NCBI RefSeq assembly: GCF_000265295.1
Contig: NC_018002.1
Location: 1,736,001 to 1,800,000 of the forward strand
Length of the DNA stretch: 64,000 bases
Reading direction: 5' to 3'
DNA from: Sulfurospirillum barnesii SES-3
Lineage (GTDB): Bacteria; Campylobacterota; Campylobacteria; Campylobacterales; Sulfurospirillaceae
Position numbers and translations under genes: made by a program. Below, one piece after another: positions 34,650 to 44,424 of this stretch; position 1 is the first letter of the stretch, and each line of letters opens with the position of its first letter. The notes beneath the pieces were generated by a model. It saw only the letters and a list, made by a program, of their open reading frames with translations, was not told the origin of the DNA and searched no databases.

Positions 34650-35564
34650 ATGCCTAAAAAATTTTTATCACTCTTATGGGGTGCATGCTTAATCAGTAGT
34701 AGCCTAAGCGCAAATTATCTTGATAAAGAGACAGCCGATAGAATCCGCAAAAATACCGACGCTATTATTGCCAAAGATTTAAATACCAAAGAATTAATTT
34801 TTTCCAAAGATGAGCAAAAAATAAACCAACCTGCTAGCCTTACAAAAATTATGACCGCTATATTGGCGATAGAAAGTGGCAGGATGAACGATATTGTAAC
34901 TATCACACGAGAGATGATTCAAGTAGAACCTACCAAAGCAGGCCTTAGAATTGGAGAAAAATTTTACTTAAGAGATTTGGTCAAAGCAGCGATGGTCATG
35001 TCAGCCAATGATGCAGCGATGAGCATTGGTGTCTATTTGGGTGATGGTAATGTTGAAAACTTTGTTGTAAAAATGAATAAAAAAGCCAAAGCCATGGGCA
35101 TGAAAAACACTAATTTTACCAATCCCTGTGGCTTTGACATTGGAAACCACTACTCCACCGCACTAGACCTTTTAAAAATGAGTGAATATGCTATTAAAAA
35201 TAACCAATTTAATGAAATGGCGAAACTCAAACGTCACGATTTTACTGCTATAAACACCAAACGTGCCTATGCCGCATACACACACAATAAACTTCTTAAT
35301 AACTACAAATACGCTGTTGGCATCAAAACAGGCTATACCCAAAAAGCAGGTCCTTGTTTAATAGCAAGAGCTAAAAACGGTAACAAAGATGTTTTAGTCG
35401 TTATGCTAAACTCCGAACAGCGATGGAAAGATATTCGCACTATTTTTGAAGACGTCCTACCTCAAATCACAGAAAATAGAGCCGTAGCACCCACAAAAAA
35501 AATTGTAACACCTAAGCAAAAAGCCCCTAAAAAAACACAAAAAAAGAAAACACAAAACGCTTAG
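34650..35564 (+). CDS. dacA: D-alanyl-D-alanine carboxypeptidase, DacA/PBP5-like
   Basis: A 304-residue exported S11 peptidase. After a signal peptide (1-21) it has the three penicillin-binding motifs: S63-x-x-K66 (SLTK), S118-x-N120 (SAN) and K226-T-G228. It removes the terminal D-Ala from peptidoglycan pentapeptides, upstream of Csd4-type trimming. The C-terminal tail is Lys/Pro/Gln-rich instead of having the PBP5 amphipathic anchor domain. AAAAGAG precedes the ATG. A hairpin with a TTACATGTAA loop follows the stop. Confidence 0.9.
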   Translation: MPKKFLSLLWGACLISSSLSANYLDKETADRIRKNTDAIIAKDLNTKELIFSKDEQKINQPASLTKIMTAILAIESGRMNDIVTITREMIQVEPTKAGLRIGEKFYLRDLVKAAMVMSANDAAMSIGVYLGDGNVENFVVKMNKKAKAMGMKNTNFTNPCGFDIGNHYSTALDLLKMSEYAIKNNQFNEMAKLKRHDFTAINTKRAYAAYTHNKLLNNYKYAVGIKTGYTQKAGPCLIARAKNGNKDVLVVMLNSEQRWKDIRTIFEDVLPQITENRAVAPTKKIVTPKQKAPKKTQKKKTQNA

Positions 35565-35587
35565 TCTCTTTACATGTAAAAGAGACT
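35563..35587 (+). terminator. Hairpin after dacA containing the iterated palindrome
   Basis: 9-bp stem AGTCTCTTT / AAAGAGACT whose 7-base loop is the centre of TTACATGTAA. No T run follows. The left part of the element (35565-35582) is repeated exactly at 37885-37902 beyond the restriction genes. Confidence 0.5.
35565..35582. repeat. 18-bp direct repeat, left copy, beside the restriction genes
   Basis: TCTCTTTACATGTAAAAG; identical to 37885-37902. Contains the iterated palindrome. Confidence 0.75.
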
Positions 35588-35672
35588 GGGTAGATCATTA
35601 TGATACGCTGCCACAGAAAACAGATCTCAAATTTCATATTGAAATATTTTTTACATCAAAATTTTCTTTGGT

Positions 35673-35678
35673 TATAAT
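35673..35678 (+). promoter_or_regulatory. Predicted -10 box of the restriction-modification genes
   Basis: TATAAT, 40 bases before the methyltransferase ATG; a second TATACT at 35696 is also possible. Confidence 0.4.
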
Positions 35679-35717
35679 GAGAGAAAATAAAATTTATACT
35701 ATAAGCAAAGGGTGTTT

Positions 35718-36845
35718 ATGACACGTATCATGCAATGCCAATCCATCTATAAAACCATTGATTTATTTTGTGGGATTGGTGGAATTAGAAAAGGGTTTGA
35801 ATTAGCTCATGGCTTTAAAAATATCCTTTCTGCTGAAATTGATCCCTATGCTTGCAAGACTTATGAACATTTGTACGGTGAAAATCCAAAAAATGATGTC
35901 ACAAGTGAGTCATTTAAAGAGAGAGTAAAACAATCTGCTTATGATATTTTATTAGCTGGTTTCCCCTGCCAATCCTTTTCAATCGCTGGAGATAAAAAAG
36001 GATTTCAAGATACAACCAGAGGGACACTCTTTTTTCATGTAGCAAACATCATCAAAGAAACAAAACCCAAAGCCTTTTTACTTGAAAATGTAGAAGGTCT
36101 TTATAGACATGACAAAGGCAAGACATTTAAAATAATTATTGATACTCTGGCTAAAGAGCTAAATTATAAACTTGTTGGAGTCAATGAGCTTGATAATGGC
36201 GAACTAAACTATAACTCTGAATCGTTTTTGAGAAAAACCATTGATTTTGGCTTACCTCAAAAAAGAATTAGAACGTATATTGTCGGCTTTTCTAATAAGA
36301 CTATTCCTCATAACTATCAATTACAACCTTTGCCTCTAAAATCAAAAAAAGTGATTTTTAAAAACCTCTATGACGTATTAGAAAAAGATGTCTCAGCTAA
36401 ATATTATTTATCTGAACAATACATTAAGACGCTTGAAAAACACAAAGAAAATCATAAATCAAAAGGAAATGGCTTTGGTTTCAAAATTGTTAACAATGGA
36501 GACAACCCAATAGCAAATACACTTCTGGCAACAGGGGGTAGTGGGAAAGAAAGAAATTTGGTCGTACAAGAAAAGCCTGAATATTACGGGCAAATGTTTG
36601 GAAGTAAACAATCCCCCATCAATAATCAAGGTATAAGAGTTATGACACCCACAGAATGGGCAAGGCTTCAAGGGTTTAAAGATTACGCTTTTATAAAAAA
36701 TGGAATGGATACTTTCTCCTTTCCAAAAGAAGTAAGCGAAACCCAGCAATACAAGCAACTAGGCAACAGTGTTTCCATTCCTGTGATTGAAGAATTAGCT
36801 CGCTATATTTACCACACATTAGAGGAAGTGAAAAGTGGGCTTTAA
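35718..36845 (+). CDS. DNA (cytosine-5-)-methyltransferase, type II
   Basis: A 375-residue C5 methyltransferase. Motif I is DLFCGIGGIRKGFE, motif IV GFPCQSFSIAG with the catalytic Cys84, motif VI LLENVEGL, motif VIII QKRIRTYIVGF, and motifs IX-X ARLQGF and QLGNSVSIPVIE. The recognition site cannot be read from sequence alone; the partner resembles HpaII, suggesting CCGG. ATG 35718 was chosen over a GTG six bases earlier. The end overlaps the nuclease gene by 11 bases. The region is visibly richer in A+T than its neighbours, a sign of transfer, and contains no TTACATGTAA. Confidence 0.93.
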   Translation: MTRIMQCQSIYKTIDLFCGIGGIRKGFELAHGFKNILSAEIDPYACKTYEHLYGENPKNDVTSESFKERVKQSAYDILLAGFPCQSFSIAGDKKGFQDTTRGTLFFHVANIIKETKPKAFLLENVEGLYRHDKGKTFKIIIDTLAKELNYKLVGVNELDNGELNYNSESFLRKTIDFGLPQKRIRTYIVGFSNKTIPHNYQLQPLPLKSKKVIFKNLYDVLEKDVSAKYYLSEQYIKTLEKHKENHKSKGNGFGFKIVNNGDNPIANTLLATGGSGKERNLVVQEKPEYYGQMFGSKQSPINNQGIRVMTPTEWARLQGFKDYAFIKNGMDTFSFPKEVSETQQYKQLGNSVSIPVIEELARYIYHTLEEVKSGL

Positions 36846-37884
36846 TAAAGGAGAATGGTCAGAGTTATATACATTTTTGTATTTACTAGAAAATTCTAAT
36901 TTAGTTATAGTTGATGAGAACTTGCAAGTTATAAATAATAAATTATTTAAGATATTAGAAATCATTTTAGCTGATAAAAAGTATGAAATTCAACCAAATC
37001 AAATAATAAAGTTATGCAACAATCGAGAAGGAAAAAACTATACTATTAGTGATTTATCAAAGCAAAGTAAAATCCTACTATCAAAAATAGTAGCCCATAA
37101 AAGTGCAAATGGCTCTTTTGAAATTGATGAAATTTCCTCTTTTATCAATGATTTTTTTGATGGGAAAAAACCAAAAGGAGCCTCCAATGTCAAAGGAGAT
37201 TTGGAAGCGAATGTGGCAGATAATCGCCTCAATGTATGTGTCAATTTGAAATATAATATCAAATCAAGTTTAGGCGCTTCAGCAACACTGCTCAATGCTT
37301 CTAACCATACAAATTTCATCTACGAACTCACCAATATTAATGATAATATTATGGATGCTAATAATGCCATTCATACACACAACAAATTATTAGACAGATG
37401 CATCTTTTTAAATCAAAATAATGTCACGATTAACTTTGTAAAAGTAGAAAGTACTACTTTGGATTATAATTTGAAATTAGTAGATTCTAATTTAGGAATC
37501 TTCTTAGCAGAAATGCTTTATTTATCCTATCTAAAAAATGAAAAAAACATTAAAAAACTAATAAATTTCATCTCAAAAAATCAAGATGAATACTCCTTTT
37601 ATGAAAAGAAAGTGGGTGATTTTGCAAATGCTGTGACATTTGGTATGAGGGCAAGTGAAAAATGGAATGGTACCAATGAAGTCAATGGAGGCATAATCCT
37701 TGTTACCAAAACAGGGGATGTCTATTTGCTTGATTTAATCTATTTTAAAAACTGTGTCGATAAATATTTGATTGATAATATTAAACTAGACAGTCCAAGT
37801 TCAAGCCATTATGGTATGTTTGATATTTATAAAGAAAACGGAAGATACTTTTTCAAACTCAATCTACAAATTAGATTCAAATAA
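36835..37884 (+). CDS. Restriction endonuclease, HpaII family (probable)
   Basis: A 349-residue protein whose start (GFNKGEWSELYTFLYLLEN) resembles the HpaII restriction enzyme family (RE_HpaII). Later features are a region with NVKGDLEANV and a C-terminal block ending in a FDIYKENGRYFFKLNLQIRF-type segment. It starts with GTG inside the methyltransferase end, the usual arrangement for a type II pair. Strongly A+T-rich. If correct, it cuts CCGG and its partner protects it. Assignment rests on recall of the family; the catalytic residues were not confirmed. Confidence 0.72.
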   Translation: MGFNKGEWSELYTFLYLLENSNLVIVDENLQVINNKLFKILEIILADKKYEIQPNQIIKLCNNREGKNYTISDLSKQSKILLSKIVAHKSANGSFEIDEISSFINDFFDGKKPKGASNVKGDLEANVADNRLNVCVNLKYNIKSSLGASATLLNASNHTNFIYELTNINDNIMDANNAIHTHNKLLDRCIFLNQNNVTINFVKVESTTLDYNLKLVDSNLGIFLAEMLYLSYLKNEKNIKKLINFISKNQDEYSFYEKKVGDFANAVTFGMRASEKWNGTNEVNGGIILVTKTGDVYLLDLIYFKNCVDKYLIDNIKLDSPSSSHYGMFDIYKENGRYFFKLNLQIRFK

Positions 37885-37902
37885 TCTCTTTACATGTAAA
37901 AG
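37885..37902. repeat. 18-bp direct repeat, right copy, beside the restriction genes
   Basis: Identical to 35565-35582; begins at the base after the nuclease stop codon and runs into the terminator stem. Confidence 0.75.
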
Positions 37903-37929
37903 CGTGCTTGCCCAAACAAGCACGCTTTT
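37898..37929. terminator. Strong bidirectional terminator
   Basis: Perfect 13-bp stem with a CCCAAA loop, flanked by A and T runs, between the nuclease gene and proC, which converge. It begins within the right-hand TTACATGTAA copy. Confidence 0.85.
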
Positions 37930-37934
37930 ACTCT

Positions 37935-38681
37935 TTACTTACTCATCCCTTTTGCTCTCTCATACGAGGCTTCCATCGCTTTGATGAAGCTGTCTCGCAC
38001 TTTGCCCTCTTCAAGTTTGGCATAACCTGCCGCTGTTGTACCAGCAGGGGACATCACTTTATCTTTTAAGATGGCAGGATGTTCACTTTTGAGCACTTCG
38101 CCCACACCTTCAAAGAGTGTTGCGATGTATTGGTAGGTAATCTCTCGCTTCATTCCTAGATTGACAGCACCATCGCTTAGGGCTTCAGCCACCAAAGCAA
38201 TCCATGCAGGAGCGCAACTGGCAATGCCCATGGCAATGTCAAGCTCTTTTTCACTCTCTAACCAAAAACATCGTCCAATGGAGCTTAAAACGTCTATGGC
38301 TTCATCTTTTAATGCTATATCACCGCACAAAGAGGTGGCTGATTTACGTACAAGCGCTGCCATGTTGGGCATAGAGCGAATGTAGTGCTTTGCCATAATA
38401 CCCGATTTGAGTTTTTCCAAACTCACCCCTGCCATAATGGAAATCACACCCTCCGCTATTCCTTTGGTTTTAAGGGTAGCAAAAGACTGAGGTTTAATCG
38501 CTAAAATCACCAAATACCCCTCCAAAGGAGGAATCTCGCTTACTATTTTAATCGTAGGATAAAGTGTTTGAAGCTCGTGTGCTCGTGTGGGATAGGCTTC
38601 AACAACGGTAATATCGTTTACATGTAAGCCTTGAAGCATCGCTCCACCCATATTGCCAGCACCAATGAGAAGTAATTTCAT
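37935..38681 (-). CDS. proC: Pyrroline-5-carboxylate reductase
   Basis: A 248-residue NAD(P)H-dependent enzyme making proline from pyrroline-5-carboxylate. It has the N-terminal Rossmann motif LIGAGNMGGAML, KPQ in the cofactor region (AIKPQSF), RSMPNMAALV and the C-terminal signature VMSPAGTTAAGYAKLEEG. The ATG at 38681 starts directly at the Rossmann strand; an upstream extension to 38762 is non-homologous and crosses the promoter of the next operon. One TTACATGTAA (38618). Confidence 0.95.
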   Translation of the reverse strand: MKLLLIGAGNMGGAMLQGLHVNDITVVEAYPTRAHELQTLYPTIKIVSEIPPLEGYLVILAIKPQSFATLKTKGIAEGVISIMAGVSLEKLKSGIMAKHYIRSMPNMAALVRKSATSLCGDIALKDEAIDVLSSIGRCFWLESEKELDIAMGIASCAPAWIALVAEALSDGAVNLGMKREITYQYIATLFEGVGEVLKSEHPAILKDKVMSPAGTTAAGYAKLEEGKVRDSFIKAMEASYERAKGMSK

Positions 38682-38781: not shown

Positions 38782-40158
38782 ATGAACCTACCCTGTAAGC
38801 TCTTAGCCTGTTGTAGTATGGCATTGCTTTTTCAAGGCTGTATTGCTCCAACGCCCCCCGTGCCACCGACACAAAAACCCTTAGAGGCGCACTTAGACCC
38901 GTGGTGGCAAGAGTTAAATGATACCCATTTAAACACTCTTGTAAACACGGTTATCACAGAAAATTTAAGCCTTCAAATGGCACAACAACGTGTGCTTCAA
39001 GCCTATGCAACCCTTGAAAACAAAAAAGCCAGTAACTTTCCTAGCGCCTCACTCTCAGGGGCAAAAGCGCATCAAGATGAACTAAAAGGCGTTGAATCCA
39101 AAAAAGAGAGTTACACAGCAACCCTCAGCGCTTCGTATGAGGTTGATTTGTTTGGCAAAAGAAGCGATGCGATTGAAGCCCAAAATGCCTCGTTTCGATC
39201 AAGTCAAGAAGCTTTACATGTAACGGGCATTAGCCTTGTGGCAGAACTGGCTAATGCCTGGTACACGCTAGGGTACAAACAAGAGAGTCTAGCCCTTTTA
39301 GAAGAGCAATTTAAGGTGGCAAACACCATTTTAACGCTCACAAAACTGAGCCGTCAAAACGGAACCAATTCCATCACCGATGTCTGGCAACAAGAACAAT
39401 ACATTAAAAATTTAGAAGCACAAAAAATCACACTCATGGGTGATATTGAAACGCAAAAACGTGCCATTAACCTCTTGCTAGGACGCTCCGCGCTTGATAC
39501 GTTGGACGTCGCAAAAGAGGCAAAACTCATTGCGCTTCCACCGCAACCTGATGTGGGCATTCCTGCGAGCAAATTACTGGCACGTCCCGATGTAAGGCAA
39601 GCCTTTTTTACACTGGAATCCTCTAACTATTCCCTCTCAGAAGCGATTAAAAACCAATACCCTAGCCTTAATCTCTCACTCAACACGGTTGCAAGTGCCA
39701 CGCATTTTGCCAACCTTTTAGATACGATTATCGCCACAGCAACGGCAACGCTTGGGGGCACACTGTTTGATGCAGGAGCGAAAGAAGATTTGGTCAAAAA
39801 AGCCCTTTTCCTCTCCAAAGAGTCCTCACTTTCTTACAAACAAACTCTGCTTGAAGCGTTTAAAGAGGTGCAAGATGCCCTTGAAAATGAAAAAACCCAA
39901 ACCATTTACCTTCACCACTTAGATGAACGCATTGCCTTAGCGAAGGTTATTTTAGAACGCCAACAAGCCAAATACCGTTTTGGAATGGTAGGATACTTAA
40001 GCGTACTCAATGCGCAAGAGAGCTTACAAGAATTAGAACAAACCCGCCTTTCAAAACAACTCGACCTACTCAAATACCGCATTGCCCTGCACCGTTCTTT
40101 AGCAGGAGGCATGATGGAGTACGATGTTATCAACGAATGGAGAAATTATGATCGCTAA
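38782..40158 (+). CDS. Outer-membrane efflux lipoprotein, TolC/NodT-like
   Basis: A 458-residue protein with a lipoprotein signal (LLFQGC, lipobox Cys at ~20) and the two OEP repeats of TolC-like channels with long helices (SLQMAQQRVLQAYATLENKKAS; ALENEKTQTIYLHHLDERIALAKVILERQQAKYRFG in part). It would form the outer-membrane duct for the adaptor and pump encoded next. Overlaps the adaptor gene by 11 bases. One TTACATGTAA (39214). Confidence 0.9.
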   Translation: MNLPCKLLACCSMALLFQGCIAPTPPVPPTQKPLEAHLDPWWQELNDTHLNTLVNTVITENLSLQMAQQRVLQAYATLENKKASNFPSASLSGAKAHQDELKGVESKKESYTATLSASYEVDLFGKRSDAIEAQNASFRSSQEALHVTGISLVAELANAWYTLGYKQESLALLEEQFKVANTILTLTKLSRQNGTNSITDVWQQEQYIKNLEAQKITLMGDIETQKRAINLLLGRSALDTLDVAKEAKLIALPPQPDVGIPASKLLARPDVRQAFFTLESSNYSLSEAIKNQYPSLNLSLNTVASATHFANLLDTIIATATATLGGTLFDAGAKEDLVKKALFLSKESSLSYKQTLLEAFKEVQDALENEKTQTIYLHHLDERIALAKVILERQQAKYRFGMVGYLSVLNAQESLQELEQTRLSKQLDLLKYRIALHRSLAGGMMEYDVINEWRNYDR

Positions 40159-41329
40159 AAAAACCATCCTTAACCTCAGCGCTTCTGTGCTGATTATTAT
40201 CATAGGGGTACTTATCACCAAATACCTTTTAAACTCTGCCCCACAAGCACAAAAACAAGCCCGCCCTCAAACGGGAACTATCGTTGAAACCGTGCAATTA
40301 ACACCCACATCTAAAGCGGTGAGCATTCCGCTTATTGGTACCCTTGAGGCTGCTCAAAAAACAACACTGAGCAGTAAGGTTTCTGGCAAGATTATTCAGA
40401 CGCATCCTAATTTTATGCTAGGAAGCATCGTCAAAAAAGGTGAACTTTTAGCGCAAATTGACCCCATCGATTATCAAGCCGCACTCGATCAAATCAAAGC
40501 ACAGCTCCTCTCCGCCAAAGCGAGTGAAACCATAGAGATGGGACAGCAAGAGAGTGCTAAAAAAGAGTTAGAACTCTCAGGAGAAAGCCCCACCGCACTC
40601 AGTCGCTCTTTAATGCTACGAGAACCACAATTGGCACAAGTAAGAGCCTCCATTGCGCAATTAGAAGCCTCCTATATAACCGCACTTAATAACCTTAAAG
40701 AAACCACCATTAAAGCACCTTATGATGGGGTTATTGTGAGCAAATCTGCTGAACTTGGAGCCTATGTGAGTGCACAAAGCAGCATTGTGGAGCTTGTTTC
40801 TACCGATACGTTTTGGATGAGTACAACCCTTCCTTTAGCCTATTTAAAGTTTTTTGACACCCACAACACAGAAGCACTCCTAAACACCAAAGTCACACTC
40901 TTTGCAGAGAAAAAACCTTTACATGTAAAAGCACGTATCTTGAAGCTTTTACCAGAACTGGATAGCACCACCAAACAAGCCAAATTACTCATTGCCATTG
41001 ATGATCCCCTAGGACTGCATACTCAAAATAAAGAAAAACGTGCACTGCTCTTAGGCGCTACCCTTGAAGCAACCCTTCAAGCCAAAGCCTATGAGAATAT
41101 TATCAGCCTACCCGCTTCGATGCTACGCTCTAACAATACCGTATGGGTCATGGATAAAAATAATACTTTACAGATTAAACCTGTGAATGTTCTCTTTAAA
41201 AATCCCAATGAAGTGCTTATTTCTGAGGGGATTGAAGCACAAGATCGCATTATTTCTACCTATCTTAGTGCACCTGTTGCAGGCATGAAACTCCTTGAAC
41301 TTTCAGCGCTTAAGGAAAAAGGGAAATAA
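40148..41329 (+). CDS. RND efflux periplasmic adaptor (membrane fusion protein)
   Basis: A 393-residue protein with an N-terminal membrane anchor and the lipoyl/hairpin/beta-barrel order of HlyD-type adaptors: SKVSGKIIQTHPNFMLGSIVKKGELLAQID near 85, a coiled-coil hairpin, then ETTIKAPYDGVIVSKSAELGAYV. ATG 40148 lies in the end of the previous gene. Its stop overlaps the pump ATG. One TTACATGTAA (40919). Confidence 0.9.
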   Translation: MIAKKTILNLSASVLIIIIGVLITKYLLNSAPQAQKQARPQTGTIVETVQLTPTSKAVSIPLIGTLEAAQKTTLSSKVSGKIIQTHPNFMLGSIVKKGELLAQIDPIDYQAALDQIKAQLLSAKASETIEMGQQESAKKELELSGESPTALSRSLMLREPQLAQVRASIAQLEASYITALNNLKETTIKAPYDGVIVSKSAELGAYVSAQSSIVELVSTDTFWMSTTLPLAYLKFFDTHNTEALLNTKVTLFAEKKPLHVKARILKLLPELDSTTKQAKLLIAIDDPLGLHTQNKEKRALLLGATLEATLQAKAYENIISLPASMLRSNNTVWVMDKNNTLQIKPVNVLFKNPNEVLISEGIEAQDRIISTYLSAPVAGMKLLELSALKEKGK

Positions 41330-44300
41330 TGCAAAAAGAGCCCAATTCATTCATTGCTTGGCTGGTGAAAAATAAGGTCACTGCCAATATTTTAATGCTT
41401 ATCTTTTTAGTCGGTGGCGTGTATATGTCACTTTATATTAAAAAAGAGGTTTTCCCCGAATTTGATCTGGACATGGTCACCATCAGTGTTGCTTATCCTG
41501 GTGCCAGTCCTGAAGAGGTGGAACAAGGCATTGTGCTCTCCATTGAAGAAGAGATTCGAAGCATTGAGGGCGTTAAAGAAGTGACGGCTACGGCAAAAGA
41601 GGGTGTCGCTTCGGTTATTGCAGAATTACACGAAAAAGGGAATAAAAACAGAACCTATCAAGACATTCAACAAGCCATCGACAGCATTACCACCTTTCCT
41701 GAAGATGCCGAAAAGCCTGTTATTTCCATGAGCTCTCGTAAGCGTCGGGTGGTTTCTTTGGCAATTATGGGTGAGGGTGAGCCATTGGTGCTTCGAGAGC
41801 TTGCAGAAATCGTGCGAGAACGTCTGCTTCAAAGCTCAGGTATTTCACAAGTGGAGCTTGTGGGTGCTCGTAATTATGAGGTTGAAATAGCACTGGATAG
41901 AGTGGTACTGGAACGCTATGGACTTTCCATGCAAAATGTTTCAGATATTATTGCCAAAGAGTCTGTTGAGCTCTCAGGTGGCAACATCAAAAGCAATGCA
42001 GGCGATATACTCCTTCGTGTCAAAACACGAAAAATAAAAGCAGCTGATTTTGAGACACTCCCTATTTTAACAACACCTCTAGGAGCAACGGTACGTTTAG
42101 GTGAAATTGCGACCATAAAAGACACCTTTGTGGATGATTCTATCTTTTTTACGTACAATAACAAGCCTGCTATTGAAATTGAGGTTTACCGCTTAGGAGA
42201 TGAAACACCTAAAAGCGTCTCACAAGCGACCAAAAAGGTCGTAGAAGAGATAACGCAAGAATTACCCTCTGCTTACGCACTTCAAATCAATGATGACAAC
42301 TCAGAGGTATACAACGCACGGCTTGAGCTCTTACTGAAAAATGGCATGATTGGACTGGTTTTAGTTCTACTCATTTTGGGTGCTTTTTTAGAGTTTAAAC
42401 TTGCGTTTTGGGTAGCACTGGGTGTTCCAACTTCCTTTTTGGGTTCACTGCTTTTCTTAGAGTATTTTGGTGTTTCCATCAATATGATTTCCATGTTTGC
42501 GTTTATTTTAGCCTTAGGTATTGTGGTGGATGATGCGATTATTGTCGGAGAAAACATTTACGAATACAAACAACGGGGCATGAACTACATAGAAGCGGCT
42601 ATTCAAGGAACCAAAGATGTTGCCATCCCTGTCACGTTTAGTATTTTAACCAATATTGTTGCTTTTCTACCGCTGATGTTTATTCCTGGTATTTTTGGAA
42701 AAACATTTTTTCCTATTGCTATTGTTGTCGCAACCGTTTTTGCTATTTCGTGGATTGAGGCCATTCTCATTTTGCCAGCACACCTTGCGTTTAAACAAAC
42801 AACAAAAAAAGGCTCCATTCTTCATACCATTGAGATACAACAGCAAAAAGTAGCACGCTCTTTTGATCGTTTTGTAGAGAAGGTGTATCAGCCTTTTTTA
42901 CTCTTTTGTATGCGCAATCGCTACCCCACGCTTGTGATGGGATTTGCCATCTTAATCGTTGTTTTAGCCTATGCAAAAAGTGGAAGACTCGGCTTTGAGA
43001 TGATGCCACGCATTGAATCCAACCGTGCGGTTGTCTATGCCACGATGCCCATTGGAACACCCCAAAGTGTTATGCAAATGGTCAATCAACAAATAATTGC
43101 CTCAGGCTTAAAAACCATAGAGACCCTTAATGAAGAAGGGCTCAATCAAGGTTATAAAAGTAAAATCAACGAAAACGAAATTCAAGTGACTTTTTATCTG
43201 CTGGAGGGAGAAATTCGAAACATATCGACCAGTGATTTTAATGATTTGTGGCGAAAAACATTGGGAAAAATTGCGGGCATAGAATCTTTAGTCTTTAAAA
43301 AAGATATTGGAGGACCTGGTGGGGGAAAAGCAGCGTTGACCCTTGAGCTAAGTCACCGAGATACCGCTCTTTTAGAAGCGGCGGCACAAGAACTCGCCGA
43401 TGTACTCAAAAGCTTTTCCATTACCAAAGATGTGGATGATGGTATTTCTACAGGAAAGCGCCAAATTGACTTTGAACTTTTACCTCTGGGGCAAAAGCTA
43501 GGGCTTACTGCTTATGAAATCGCACGTCAAGTACGCTACACGACCTATGGCAAAGAGGCTATTCGTGAACAACAAGGACGCAATGAAGTCAAAATCATGG
43601 TACGTCAAACAGAAAATGAACGTAACAGTGAAGCCATTATTGATGATATTAAAATCAAAACACCCAGCGGTGGCTTTGTAAGACTAGGTGATGTTGCCAA
43701 GCGCATTGAAGGCAATGCTTATACCAAAATTTCAAGACGTGAGGGTAAACGCATTATCAATGTCACCGCCAATGTGGAGCCTGAACGTGATACCCCTCAA
43801 CTTATTAGCTCTTTAGATACTGATTTTATTCCAAAGCTTCAACAAAAATACCCCGAACTTCAAATTTCCTATCAGGGACGTCAAGCAGAAACCAAAGAGA
43901 GTAGCCGAAGTTTAATCTCAAGTTTTCTGTTGGTCTTAGCCGTTCTTTACATTATGCTTGCCATTCCTTTTGCAAGTTACACACAGCCTTTAATTATTAT
44001 GATTGCTATTCCCTTTGGAATTATCGGAGCTTTTTTAGGGCATATGCTCTTAGGATATAGCCTAAGTATGGTCAGTATTTTAGGGGTGGTAGCGCTGTGT
44101 GGTGTGGTCGTTAATGATACTTTGGTCATGGTTGATTACGCTAATACCATGAGAAAAGAGGGGCATAAAGCATTTGAAGCCATTATTCTTGCAGCTACAA
44201 GACGCTTTAGGCCTATTTTTCTCACCACCGCCACCACATTTGGTGGTCTTGCACCGATGATTTATGAAACCTCTATCCAAGCTAAATTTATGATTCCTAT

Positions 44301-44424
44301 GGCAATTTCGCTAGGATATGGTATTTTATTTTCAACACTCATTTCCTTGATTTTTGTACCCGCACTTTATATTATGTTAGAAGATATTAAAGCCTTGTTT
44401 CAGCCTTCGCATTCCAACGCATAA
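41329..44424 (+). CDS. RND family efflux pump, inner-membrane subunit
   Basis: A 1031-residue AcrB/MexB-type pump with twelve predicted helices and two large periplasmic loops. Family marks: VFPEFDLDMVTISVAYPGASPEEVEQ in loop 1, GIVVDDAIIVGEN in helix 4 with the paired Asp of the proton relay, and GVVVNDTLVMVDYAN in helix 10. It exports drugs, detergents or similar compounds using the proton gradient; substrates are unknown. It forms a tripartite operon with the two preceding genes. Confidence 0.93.
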   Translation: MQKEPNSFIAWLVKNKVTANILMLIFLVGGVYMSLYIKKEVFPEFDLDMVTISVAYPGASPEEVEQGIVLSIEEEIRSIEGVKEVTATAKEGVASVIAELHEKGNKNRTYQDIQQAIDSITTFPEDAEKPVISMSSRKRRVVSLAIMGEGEPLVLRELAEIVRERLLQSSGISQVELVGARNYEVEIALDRVVLERYGLSMQNVSDIIAKESVELSGGNIKSNAGDILLRVKTRKIKAADFETLPILTTPLGATVRLGEIATIKDTFVDDSIFFTYNNKPAIEIEVYRLGDETPKSVSQATKKVVEEITQELPSAYALQINDDNSEVYNARLELLLKNGMIGLVLVLLILGAFLEFKLAFWVALGVPTSFLGSLLFLEYFGVSINMISMFAFILALGIVVDDAIIVGENIYEYKQRGMNYIEAAIQGTKDVAIPVTFSILTNIVAFLPLMFIPGIFGKTFFPIAIVVATVFAISWIEAILILPAHLAFKQTTKKGSILHTIEIQQQKVARSFDRFVEKVYQPFLLFCMRNRYPTLVMGFAILIVVLAYAKSGRLGFEMMPRIESNRAVVYATMPIGTPQSVMQMVNQQIIASGLKTIETLNEEGLNQGYKSKINENEIQVTFYLLEGEIRNISTSDFNDLWRKTLGKIAGIESLVFKKDIGGPGGGKAALTLELSHRDTALLEAAAQELADVLKSFSITKDVDDGISTGKRQIDFELLPLGQKLGLTAYEIARQVRYTTYGKEAIREQQGRNEVKIMVRQTENERNSEAIIDDIKIKTPSGGFVRLGDVAKRIEGNAYTKISRREGKRIINVTANVEPERDTPQLISSLDTDFIPKLQQKYPELQISYQGRQAETKESSRSLISSFLLVLAVLYIMLAIPFASYTQPLIIMIAIPFGIIGAFLGHMLLGYSLSMVSILGVVALCGVVVNDTLVMVDYANTMRKEGHKAFEAIILAATRRFRPIFLTTATTFGGLAPMIYETSIQAKFMIPMAISLGYGILFSTLISLIFVPALYIMLEDIKALFQPSHSNA

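What the first reader, a model, noticed from the sequence alone, without database searches (positions are those of the whole stretch)
35565..37902. Restriction-modification pair bounded by 18-bp direct repeats carrying the palindrome
The A+T-rich methyltransferase and HpaII-like nuclease genes contain no decamer, yet identical 18-bp sequences TCTCTTTACATGTAAAAG lie on each side (35565-35582 and 37885-37902). This looks like insertion at, or recombination between, copies of the iterated element, with the right copy touching the nuclease stop. The palindromes could act as dispersed homology for gene gain and loss.
Basis: partly seen in the sequence, partly recalled or inferred. Interest (0 to 1): 0.58.

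Follow-up and report, generated by a model that had tools for sequence, protein, structure and literature searches.

The report
Restriction-gene slot bordered by palindromes
A DNA-defence gene pair sits in a chromosomal slot that is empty, or filled with different defence genes, in related bacteria, and each filled slot is bordered by a short palindrome that this group carries about a thousand times per genome.

Summary
Two identical 18-mers flank an intact HpaII-family restriction-modification (RM) pair between dacA and proC. The empty-site test was run on 23 genus genomes with this locus. Four are filled: HpaII RM in the window's genome; a different, NgoPII-family RM in three others, one of which also holds TIR/PDC-M50 defence genes. 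All four carry the palindrome TTACATGTAA on both borders. Of 19 empty sites, the three sister genomes carry exactly one copy, 16 carry none, and none carries two. A ~50-bp leader between the left palindrome and the first RM gene is shared by the HpaII and NgoPII cassettes, so RM genes were probably swapped behind a kept promoter. The best reading is a "minimal mobile element"-like slot, filled by recombination, that opened at one palindrome. The palindrome itself is highly iterated: 1230 copies, against 6 of its reversed control. It is positionally conserved across the genus but has decayed in two lineages. Gene-sized insertions elsewhere also end near it more often than chance under most nulls, but not under the harshest. 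Whether the palindrome drives insertion, or merely shares its preference for gene 3' ends, is open.

The parts
34650..35564 (+). dacA, D-Ala-D-Ala carboxypeptidase; conserved left neighbour of the slot
   Evidence: PF00768 E 9.4e-48; found at this locus in 23 of 24 genus genomes
35565..35582 (.). left 18-bp direct repeat carrying TTACATGTAA
   Evidence: exact match
35629..35680 (+). leader/promoter-like stretch shared with the NgoPII cassettes of other species
   Evidence: 94% over 52 bp with G006; weaker with G004, G015 and G017. Genus-wide search: E 1.1e-16 (G006) and 3.4e-10 (G004), nothing else below 7e-5
35718..36845 (+). C5 cytosine DNA methyltransferase, 375 aa from ATG (GTG start possible at 35712)
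   Evidence: PF00145 E 3.9e-76, TIGR00675 E 1.7e-82
36835..37884 (+). HpaII-family type II restriction endonuclease, 349 aa, overlapping the methyltransferase by 11 bases
   Evidence: PF09561 E 5.9e-71 over the whole profile; PADLOC REase_II E 2.8e-83
37885..37902 (.). right 18-bp direct repeat carrying TTACATGTAA, abutting the nuclease stop
   Evidence: exact match
37900..37927 (.). inverted repeat AAGCGTGCTTG/CAAGCACGCTT followed by T's, probable shared terminator; the GTGCTTG..CAAGCAC stem also follows the element in G005, G003, G022, G004 and G006
   Evidence: read directly and compared
37935..38681 (-). proC, pyrroline-5-carboxylate reductase; conserved right neighbour of the slot
   Evidence: PF14748 E 6.7e-30, NF008839 E 4e-72

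Best explanation
The dacA-proC gap is an exchangeable defence-gene slot, like a minimal mobile element. In the ancestor of this species and its sisters a single palindrome stood between the dacA stop and the terminator shared with proC (shown by three sister genomes). A cassette consisting of palindrome, leader promoter and restriction-modification genes came to lie there, so that a palindrome now stands at each border (shown in four genomes with two unrelated RM families). In this species the HpaII-family genes most likely replaced NgoPII-family genes behind the kept leader (inferred from the shared leader and from its absence in the nearest HpaII relative). Entry and exchange most likely went by homologous recombination in the conserved neighbours and the leader after DNA uptake, with the palindrome serving as the junction or short homology on at least one side (inferred). 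No mobility gene is carried.
For: The same gap holds unrelated cassettes: HpaII RM in G000; NgoPII RM in G015, G004 and G006; ThsB/PDC-M50 genes added in G006. 4 of 4 filled sites have two border palindromes; 3 of 19 empty sites have one; 0 of 19 have two. RE_HpaII occurs in 1 of 24 genus genomes (all 24 are among the 38 searched), and the nearest relative lies in another family of the order (G177: methyltransferase 87%, nuclease 73%), so the acquisition is recent. G004/G006 also show a near-direct repeat at the borders, TCTCTTAAAT(G)CTTTACATGTAA. The leader is shared between different RM families and recurs beside a palindrome ahead of an NgoPII nuclease at another locus in G017. The dacA and proC trees conflict for G000 (100/100 on both sides; sites), so a recombination boundary lies in or near the slot. 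Twin cases elsewhere: a 1103-bp gene in G019 with a palindrome at both ends and one in the empty allele, and a 1576-bp insert in G023.
Against: Only 11 bases are shared by the two borders in G015. Sixteen empty sites have no palindrome. Both copies in G000 sit just after stop codons, where 40-43% of noncoding palindromes of the related genomes sampled lie anyway, so independent gain is possible. The dacA/proC conflict could equally come from import of proC into the sister trio. No strain pair differing only by this insertion was available.
Confidence: 0.58

Rival explanations
1. Site-specific integration: an unknown recombinase or nuclease acts on TTACATGTAA, so a DNA circle or fragment carrying one palindrome integrates at a chromosomal palindrome and leaves two as direct repeats. 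The palindrome would be a genome-wide attachment site.
For: One copy in sister empty sites and two at filled sites. An exact twin in G019/G008 with palindromes 1 and 9 bp from the two breakpoints and one in the empty allele. Breakpoints of 11 close-pair indels lie closer to palindromes than matched random positions (Fisher p 5e-6; 7e-4 with the all-noncoding null).
Against: In most indels only one breakpoint is at a palindrome (both within 30 bp in 1 of 11). No recombinase is carried by the insert. About 70% of palindromes lie inside genes, an odd place for attachment sites. Under the null that puts every breakpoint within 30 bp after a stop, the signal is weak (close pairs at 30 bp P 0.016; cross pairs P 0.15-0.26).
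Confidence: 0.15
2. Coincidence of preference: palindromes accumulate just after stop codons by their own maintenance process, and gene insertions also fall at gene ends, so the borders need not have taken part in the insertion.
For: 40-43% of noncoding palindromes lie within 20 bp after a stop against 13-16% of random noncoding positions in three larger samples of related genomes. In G015 the two borders share only 11 bases. Cross-pair indels show no significant excess under the stop-matched null.
Against: The two G000 copies share 18 bases, seen in only 0.2-0.4% of random pairs. All four filled sites have both borders marked, against 0 of 19 empty sites. G004/G006 borders share about 22 bases. 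Close-pair indels remain enriched at 30 bp (P 0.016) even under the harsh null.
Confidence: 0.2
3. The palindrome is a DNA uptake signal (DUS/USS-like): fragments that carry it are taken up preferentially, so acquired cassettes come bordered by it, and ordinary homologous recombination does the rest. This overlaps with the best explanation and specifies the palindrome's role.
For: Density of one per 2.0 kb, flanking A/T tracts and a CT..AG extension, position at gene ends, strong positional conservation in most genomes and random decay in G009 and G020, and presence of ComEC and DprA families.
Against: ComEC and DprA are also present in the palindrome-poor G009 and G020, so they do not track it. 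It is palindromic, unlike known uptake signals (recalled). Transformation of this genus was not tested, and in the literature listings I saw no report of it.
Confidence: 0.3

Closest known systems
Minimal mobile elements of Neisseria (Saunders and Snyder 2002, cited in PMC3898611)
   Same: A gap between two conserved genes that holds different whole-gene cassettes in different genomes, without mobility genes. The neisserial pheS-pheT slot carries restriction systems (recalled).
   Different: Here each filled slot is bordered on both sides by one genus-wide iterated palindrome, the comparison is between species rather than strains, and recombination as the mechanism is inferred.
dRS3 repeats of Neisseria (PMC3898611, passages read)
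   Same: A short repeat with inverted ends in hundreds of copies, where identical copies have been proposed as the integration or deletion site of a gene (pilC1).
   Different: dRS3 is an intergenic 20-mer targeted by a known prophage integrase; TTACATGTAA lies mostly inside genes and has no known recombinase.
HIP1 of cyanobacteria (PMC4390886, passages read)
   Same: A short palindrome in very high copy in most members of a lineage and at low number in some, with reports linking it to recombination and to precise insertion of a repeat.
   Different: A different sequence (GCGATCGC), in an unrelated phylum. The link to orphan methyltransferases is described there and only a lead with exceptions here.
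HpaII-type restriction-modification system
   Same: C5 methyltransferase plus a nuclease matching the full RE_HpaII profile.
   Different: Recognition sequence not tested; no solved structure matches the nuclease by sequence.

Membership tests
Minimal mobile element | lies between two genes conserved across the group | tested here: met
   dacA found in 23 of 24 genus genomes; proC found beside the slot in the 22 genomes plus G022
Minimal mobile element | different whole-gene cassettes in different genomes | tested here: met
   HpaII RM, NgoPII RM, NgoPII RM with ThsB/PDC-M50 genes, or empty
Minimal mobile element | incorporated solely by homologous recombination, no mobility genes | tested here: inconclusive
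   no mobility ORF in the insert; dacA/proC tree conflict and shared leader fit, but the mechanism was not observed
Highly iterated palindrome (HIP) | palindrome far above chance across the genome | tested here: met
   1230 copies against 6 of the reversed control in G000; 49 to 1496 in the 24 genus genomes
Highly iterated palindrome (HIP) | same sequence as HIP1 (GCGATCGC) | tested here: not met
   TTACATGTAA
Highly iterated palindrome (HIP) | accompanied by an orphan methyltransferase acting on it | tested here: inconclusive
   a 328-333-aa D12-class match accompanies 13 palindrome-rich genomes and is missing in G009 and G020, but G017 and G027 are rich without any D12 match and genus g4 is poor with proteins of similar size
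DNA uptake sequence | enhances uptake or transformation | not testable with these tools
   needs an assay
HpaII restriction-modification system | nuclease matches RE_HpaII, paired with a C5 methyltransferase | tested here: met
HpaII restriction-modification system | recognises CCGG | not testable with these tools
   needs an enzyme assay or methylome
Transposon or integrative element | encodes transposase, integrase or recombinase | tested here: not met
   only the methyltransferase and nuclease on the coding strand; two opposite-strand ORFs of 93-99 aa overlap them

The most novel reading that the evidence does not exclude
TTACATGTAA is a genome-wide recombination or uptake site of this bacterial family, kept in place by an unidentified activity, at which gene cassettes, defence genes among them, are gained and swapped. 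It would be a HIP1-like system tied to gene flow, with natural loss lineages (G009, G020) available for finding the responsible gene.
Probability: 0.27. Interest if true: 0.82.

Novelty: new variant of a known kind. Interest (0 to 1): 0.57.

Why it matters
If right, it links an abundant, unexplained genomic palindrome to the acquisition of defence genes, and gives a test case: one slot, several cassettes, single-copy empty sites in sister species. The palindrome's decay in two nested lineages would let the long-standing question of what maintains highly iterated palindromes be approached genetically outside cyanobacteria.

Tried and rejected
Competence genes as the factor that maintains the palindrome: ComEC and DprA family matches are present in the palindrome-poor G009 and G020 too, so neither discriminates. 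N6_N4 methyltransferases (PF01555): matches in 11 of 24 genus genomes with no evident relation to palindrome number. D12 methyltransferases (PF02086): suggestive inside the genus, with clear exceptions across the family; kept only as a lead.

Absence of the decamer from the RM genes as evidence of foreign origin: about 1.1 expected in 2.3 kb, so not informative alone; the NgoPII nuclease gene carries one inside. A 25-base match of the left spacer to a NapC-like gene in G005 was looked at and left as probable chance. A sequence similar to the left junction in G014 (L030) lies inside a hydrolase-like gene and is not a donor site.

Indel test: the 61-bp threshold at which 11 of 11 close-pair indels score was chosen after seeing the data, so results are given for several distances and nulls. 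Three insertions that interrupt genes and look like insertion sequences were dropped from the count (1 of 3 within 80 bp of a palindrome, 0 of 3 within 61). The 13 deeper cross-pair indels were de-duplicated by hand from the cross-pair rows.

Full report
WHAT IS THERE. The two 18-mers are exact and at the stated coordinates, with no third exact copy in the window. The left one begins on the base after the dacA stop, the right one on the base after the nuclease stop. Between them lie an intact C5 methyltransferase and a nuclease matching the whole RE_HpaII profile, overlapping by 11 bases. After the right copy comes an inverted repeat, AAGCGTGCTTG/CAAGCACGCTT, and then proC on the other strand.

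THE PALINDROME. TTACATGTAA occurs 1230 times in the 2.51-Mb genome; its reversed control occurs 6 times. Across the 24 genus genomes counts run from 49 to 1496; in the other genera of the family sampled in that call, from 7 to 733; in the other families of the order, 0 to 6. The extended consensus is CT-TTACATGTAA-AG with A/T-rich flanks. About 70% of copies lie inside genes. Noncoding copies gather just after stop codons: 40-43% within 20 bp, against 13-16% of random noncoding positions, in the three larger samples. At aligned sites most copies are kept between palindrome-rich genomes (for example 21 of 22, 16 of 18 and 13 of 17), whereas G009 keeps 2 of 18-19 and G020 0-1 of 19-21, with scattered substitutions. 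Something maintains the palindrome, and two lineages have lost that maintenance. Papers: searches for the sequence, for Sulfurospirillum with palindromes and for Sulfurospirillum with DNA uptake gave listings in which I saw no description of it. In PMC4390886 and PMC8865925 I read only passages found by term.

THE EMPTY-SITE TEST. dacA was found in 23 of 24 genus genomes (G007 gave no match). Filled, with a palindrome on both borders: G000 with HpaII RM; G015, G004 and G006 with NgoPII RM (RE_NgoPII E 7.7e-130 in G015). G006 carries three further genes, matching ThsB and the PADLOC candidates PDC-M50A and PDC-M50B. Empty with one palindrome right after dacA, followed by a GTGCTTG..CAAGCAC terminator: G005, G003 and G022. 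Empty with no palindrome: 16 genomes, mostly with another terminator (G015, G004, G006 and G022). No empty site has two. The dacA tree makes G005, G003 and G015 the relatives of G000 (100/100; G022 was not in that tree), so the immediate ancestor probably had one copy.

THE CASSETTE. RE_HpaII occurs in 1 of 24 genus genomes (within the 38). In 397 phylum genomes 13, G000 included, have a match; the nearest relative, in another family, is 87% (methyltransferase) and 73% (nuclease) identical and has no palindrome within its 4 kb. RE_NgoPII occurs in 4 of 24, three of them in this slot. A ~50-bp leader with a TATAAT box between the left palindrome and the first gene is 94% identical over 52 bp between the HpaII cassette of G000 and the NgoPII cassette of G006, weaker in G004 and G015, and recurs beside a palindrome ahead of the NgoPII nuclease at another place in G017. 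A genus-wide search finds it strongly only at this slot (E 1.1e-16 and 3.4e-10; next 7.2e-5). The nearest HpaII relative lacks it (no hit of L203). I infer that HpaII genes replaced NgoPII genes behind a kept leader. G004 and G006 borders share TCTCTTAAAT(G)CTTTACATGTAA; G015 borders share 11 bases.

MOSAICISM. The dacA tree joins G000 to G015, G003 and G005 (100/100). The proC tree joins those three without G000 (100/100). Group-informative sites run 25 for the sisters and 13 against in dacA (3 neither), but 5 for and 25 against in proC. A recombination boundary lies near the slot; which side was imported is unresolved.

IS IT GENERAL? Stretches of 400 kb from two pairs (G014/G023, G019/G008) gave 11 clean, non-disrupting indels of at least 400 bp. 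In 11 of 11 a palindrome lies within 61 bp of a breakpoint (a threshold fixed afterwards), in 8 of 11 within 30 bp, in 6 of 11 within 16 bp; at both breakpoints within 30 bp in 1 of 11. Under a null matched for class and distance after a stop, Fisher p is 5e-6; 13 further cross-pair indels give 4e-4. With all noncoding positions as null: 7e-4, 0.056, and 4e-4 for all 24. With every breakpoint placed within 30 bp after a stop: close pairs P 0.10, 0.016 and under 5e-5 at 16, 30 and 61 bp; the cross set, counted there as 17 rows with some loci twice, P 0.15-0.26. Two cases copy the dacA-proC picture: a 1103-bp membrane-protein gene in G019 and a 1576-bp insert in G023. Gene calls were a simple longest-ORF method, a limit on all these figures.

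WHAT MAINTAINS IT. ComEC and DprA do not discriminate. A D12-class methyltransferase match of 328-333 aa is present in 13 palindrome-rich genomes (G000, G003, G004, G005, G008, G012, G013, G014, G015, G016, G019, G022, G023) and missing in G009 and G020. But G017 (934 copies) and G027 (567) have no D12 match, and genus g4 (7-23 copies in the five counted) has D12 proteins of similar size. It is a lead only.

COMPARISON. The slot meets two of three defining features of a minimal mobile element as stated in PMC3898611 (passages read); the third, incorporation solely by homologous recombination, is inferred. The palindrome behaves like a highly iterated palindrome but is not HIP1. PMC3898611 also describes dRS3 repeats as possible integration or deletion sites, the nearest precedent for iterated repeats bordering a gained gene. 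PMC2397512 (passages) argues that neisserial uptake sequences are scarce in acquired genes, a caution against reading the palindrome as an engine of gene gain.

Noticed in passing
whole genome G000; genus and family: TTACATGTAA is a highly iterated palindrome of much of the family, with near-complete decay in G009 and G020 and low numbers in genus g4.
   Followed up: partly
G000:C1:2225141-2225983: A D12-class adenine methyltransferase of about 331 aa tracks palindrome abundance within the genus, with exceptions (G017, G027, genus g4).
   Followed up: partly
L033 (G006), dacA-proC slot: Between the NgoPII nuclease and methyltransferase lie three genes matching ThsB TIR-like and PADLOC candidates PDC-M50A and PDC-M50B: a compact defence hotspot.
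   Followed up: partly
window 37935-38681 versus 34650-35564: proC and dacA give conflicting trees for this genome, showing a recombination boundary near the slot.
   Followed up: partly
G019:C1 about 1838602-1843147 (L173-L174): Several copies of a hairpin-like repeat, GGGGACAGGCTACTTT...AAAGTAGCCTGTCCCC, carry the palindrome in the loop, between small lipoprotein-like genes; it resembles REP-type elements (recalled).
   Followed up: no
G008 concatenated stretch 103350-105169 and G023 135392-137711: A second slot with insertions at the same site in two species, one of them a HipBA-like pair (by eye), each with a palindrome close to an edge.
   Followed up: no
window 38782-44424: An outer-membrane factor and RND-type efflux cluster follows proC in G000, G005 and G003; in the other genomes compared that DNA has no match, and in G015, G004 and G006 an ABC-transporter operon lies there instead.
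   Followed up: no
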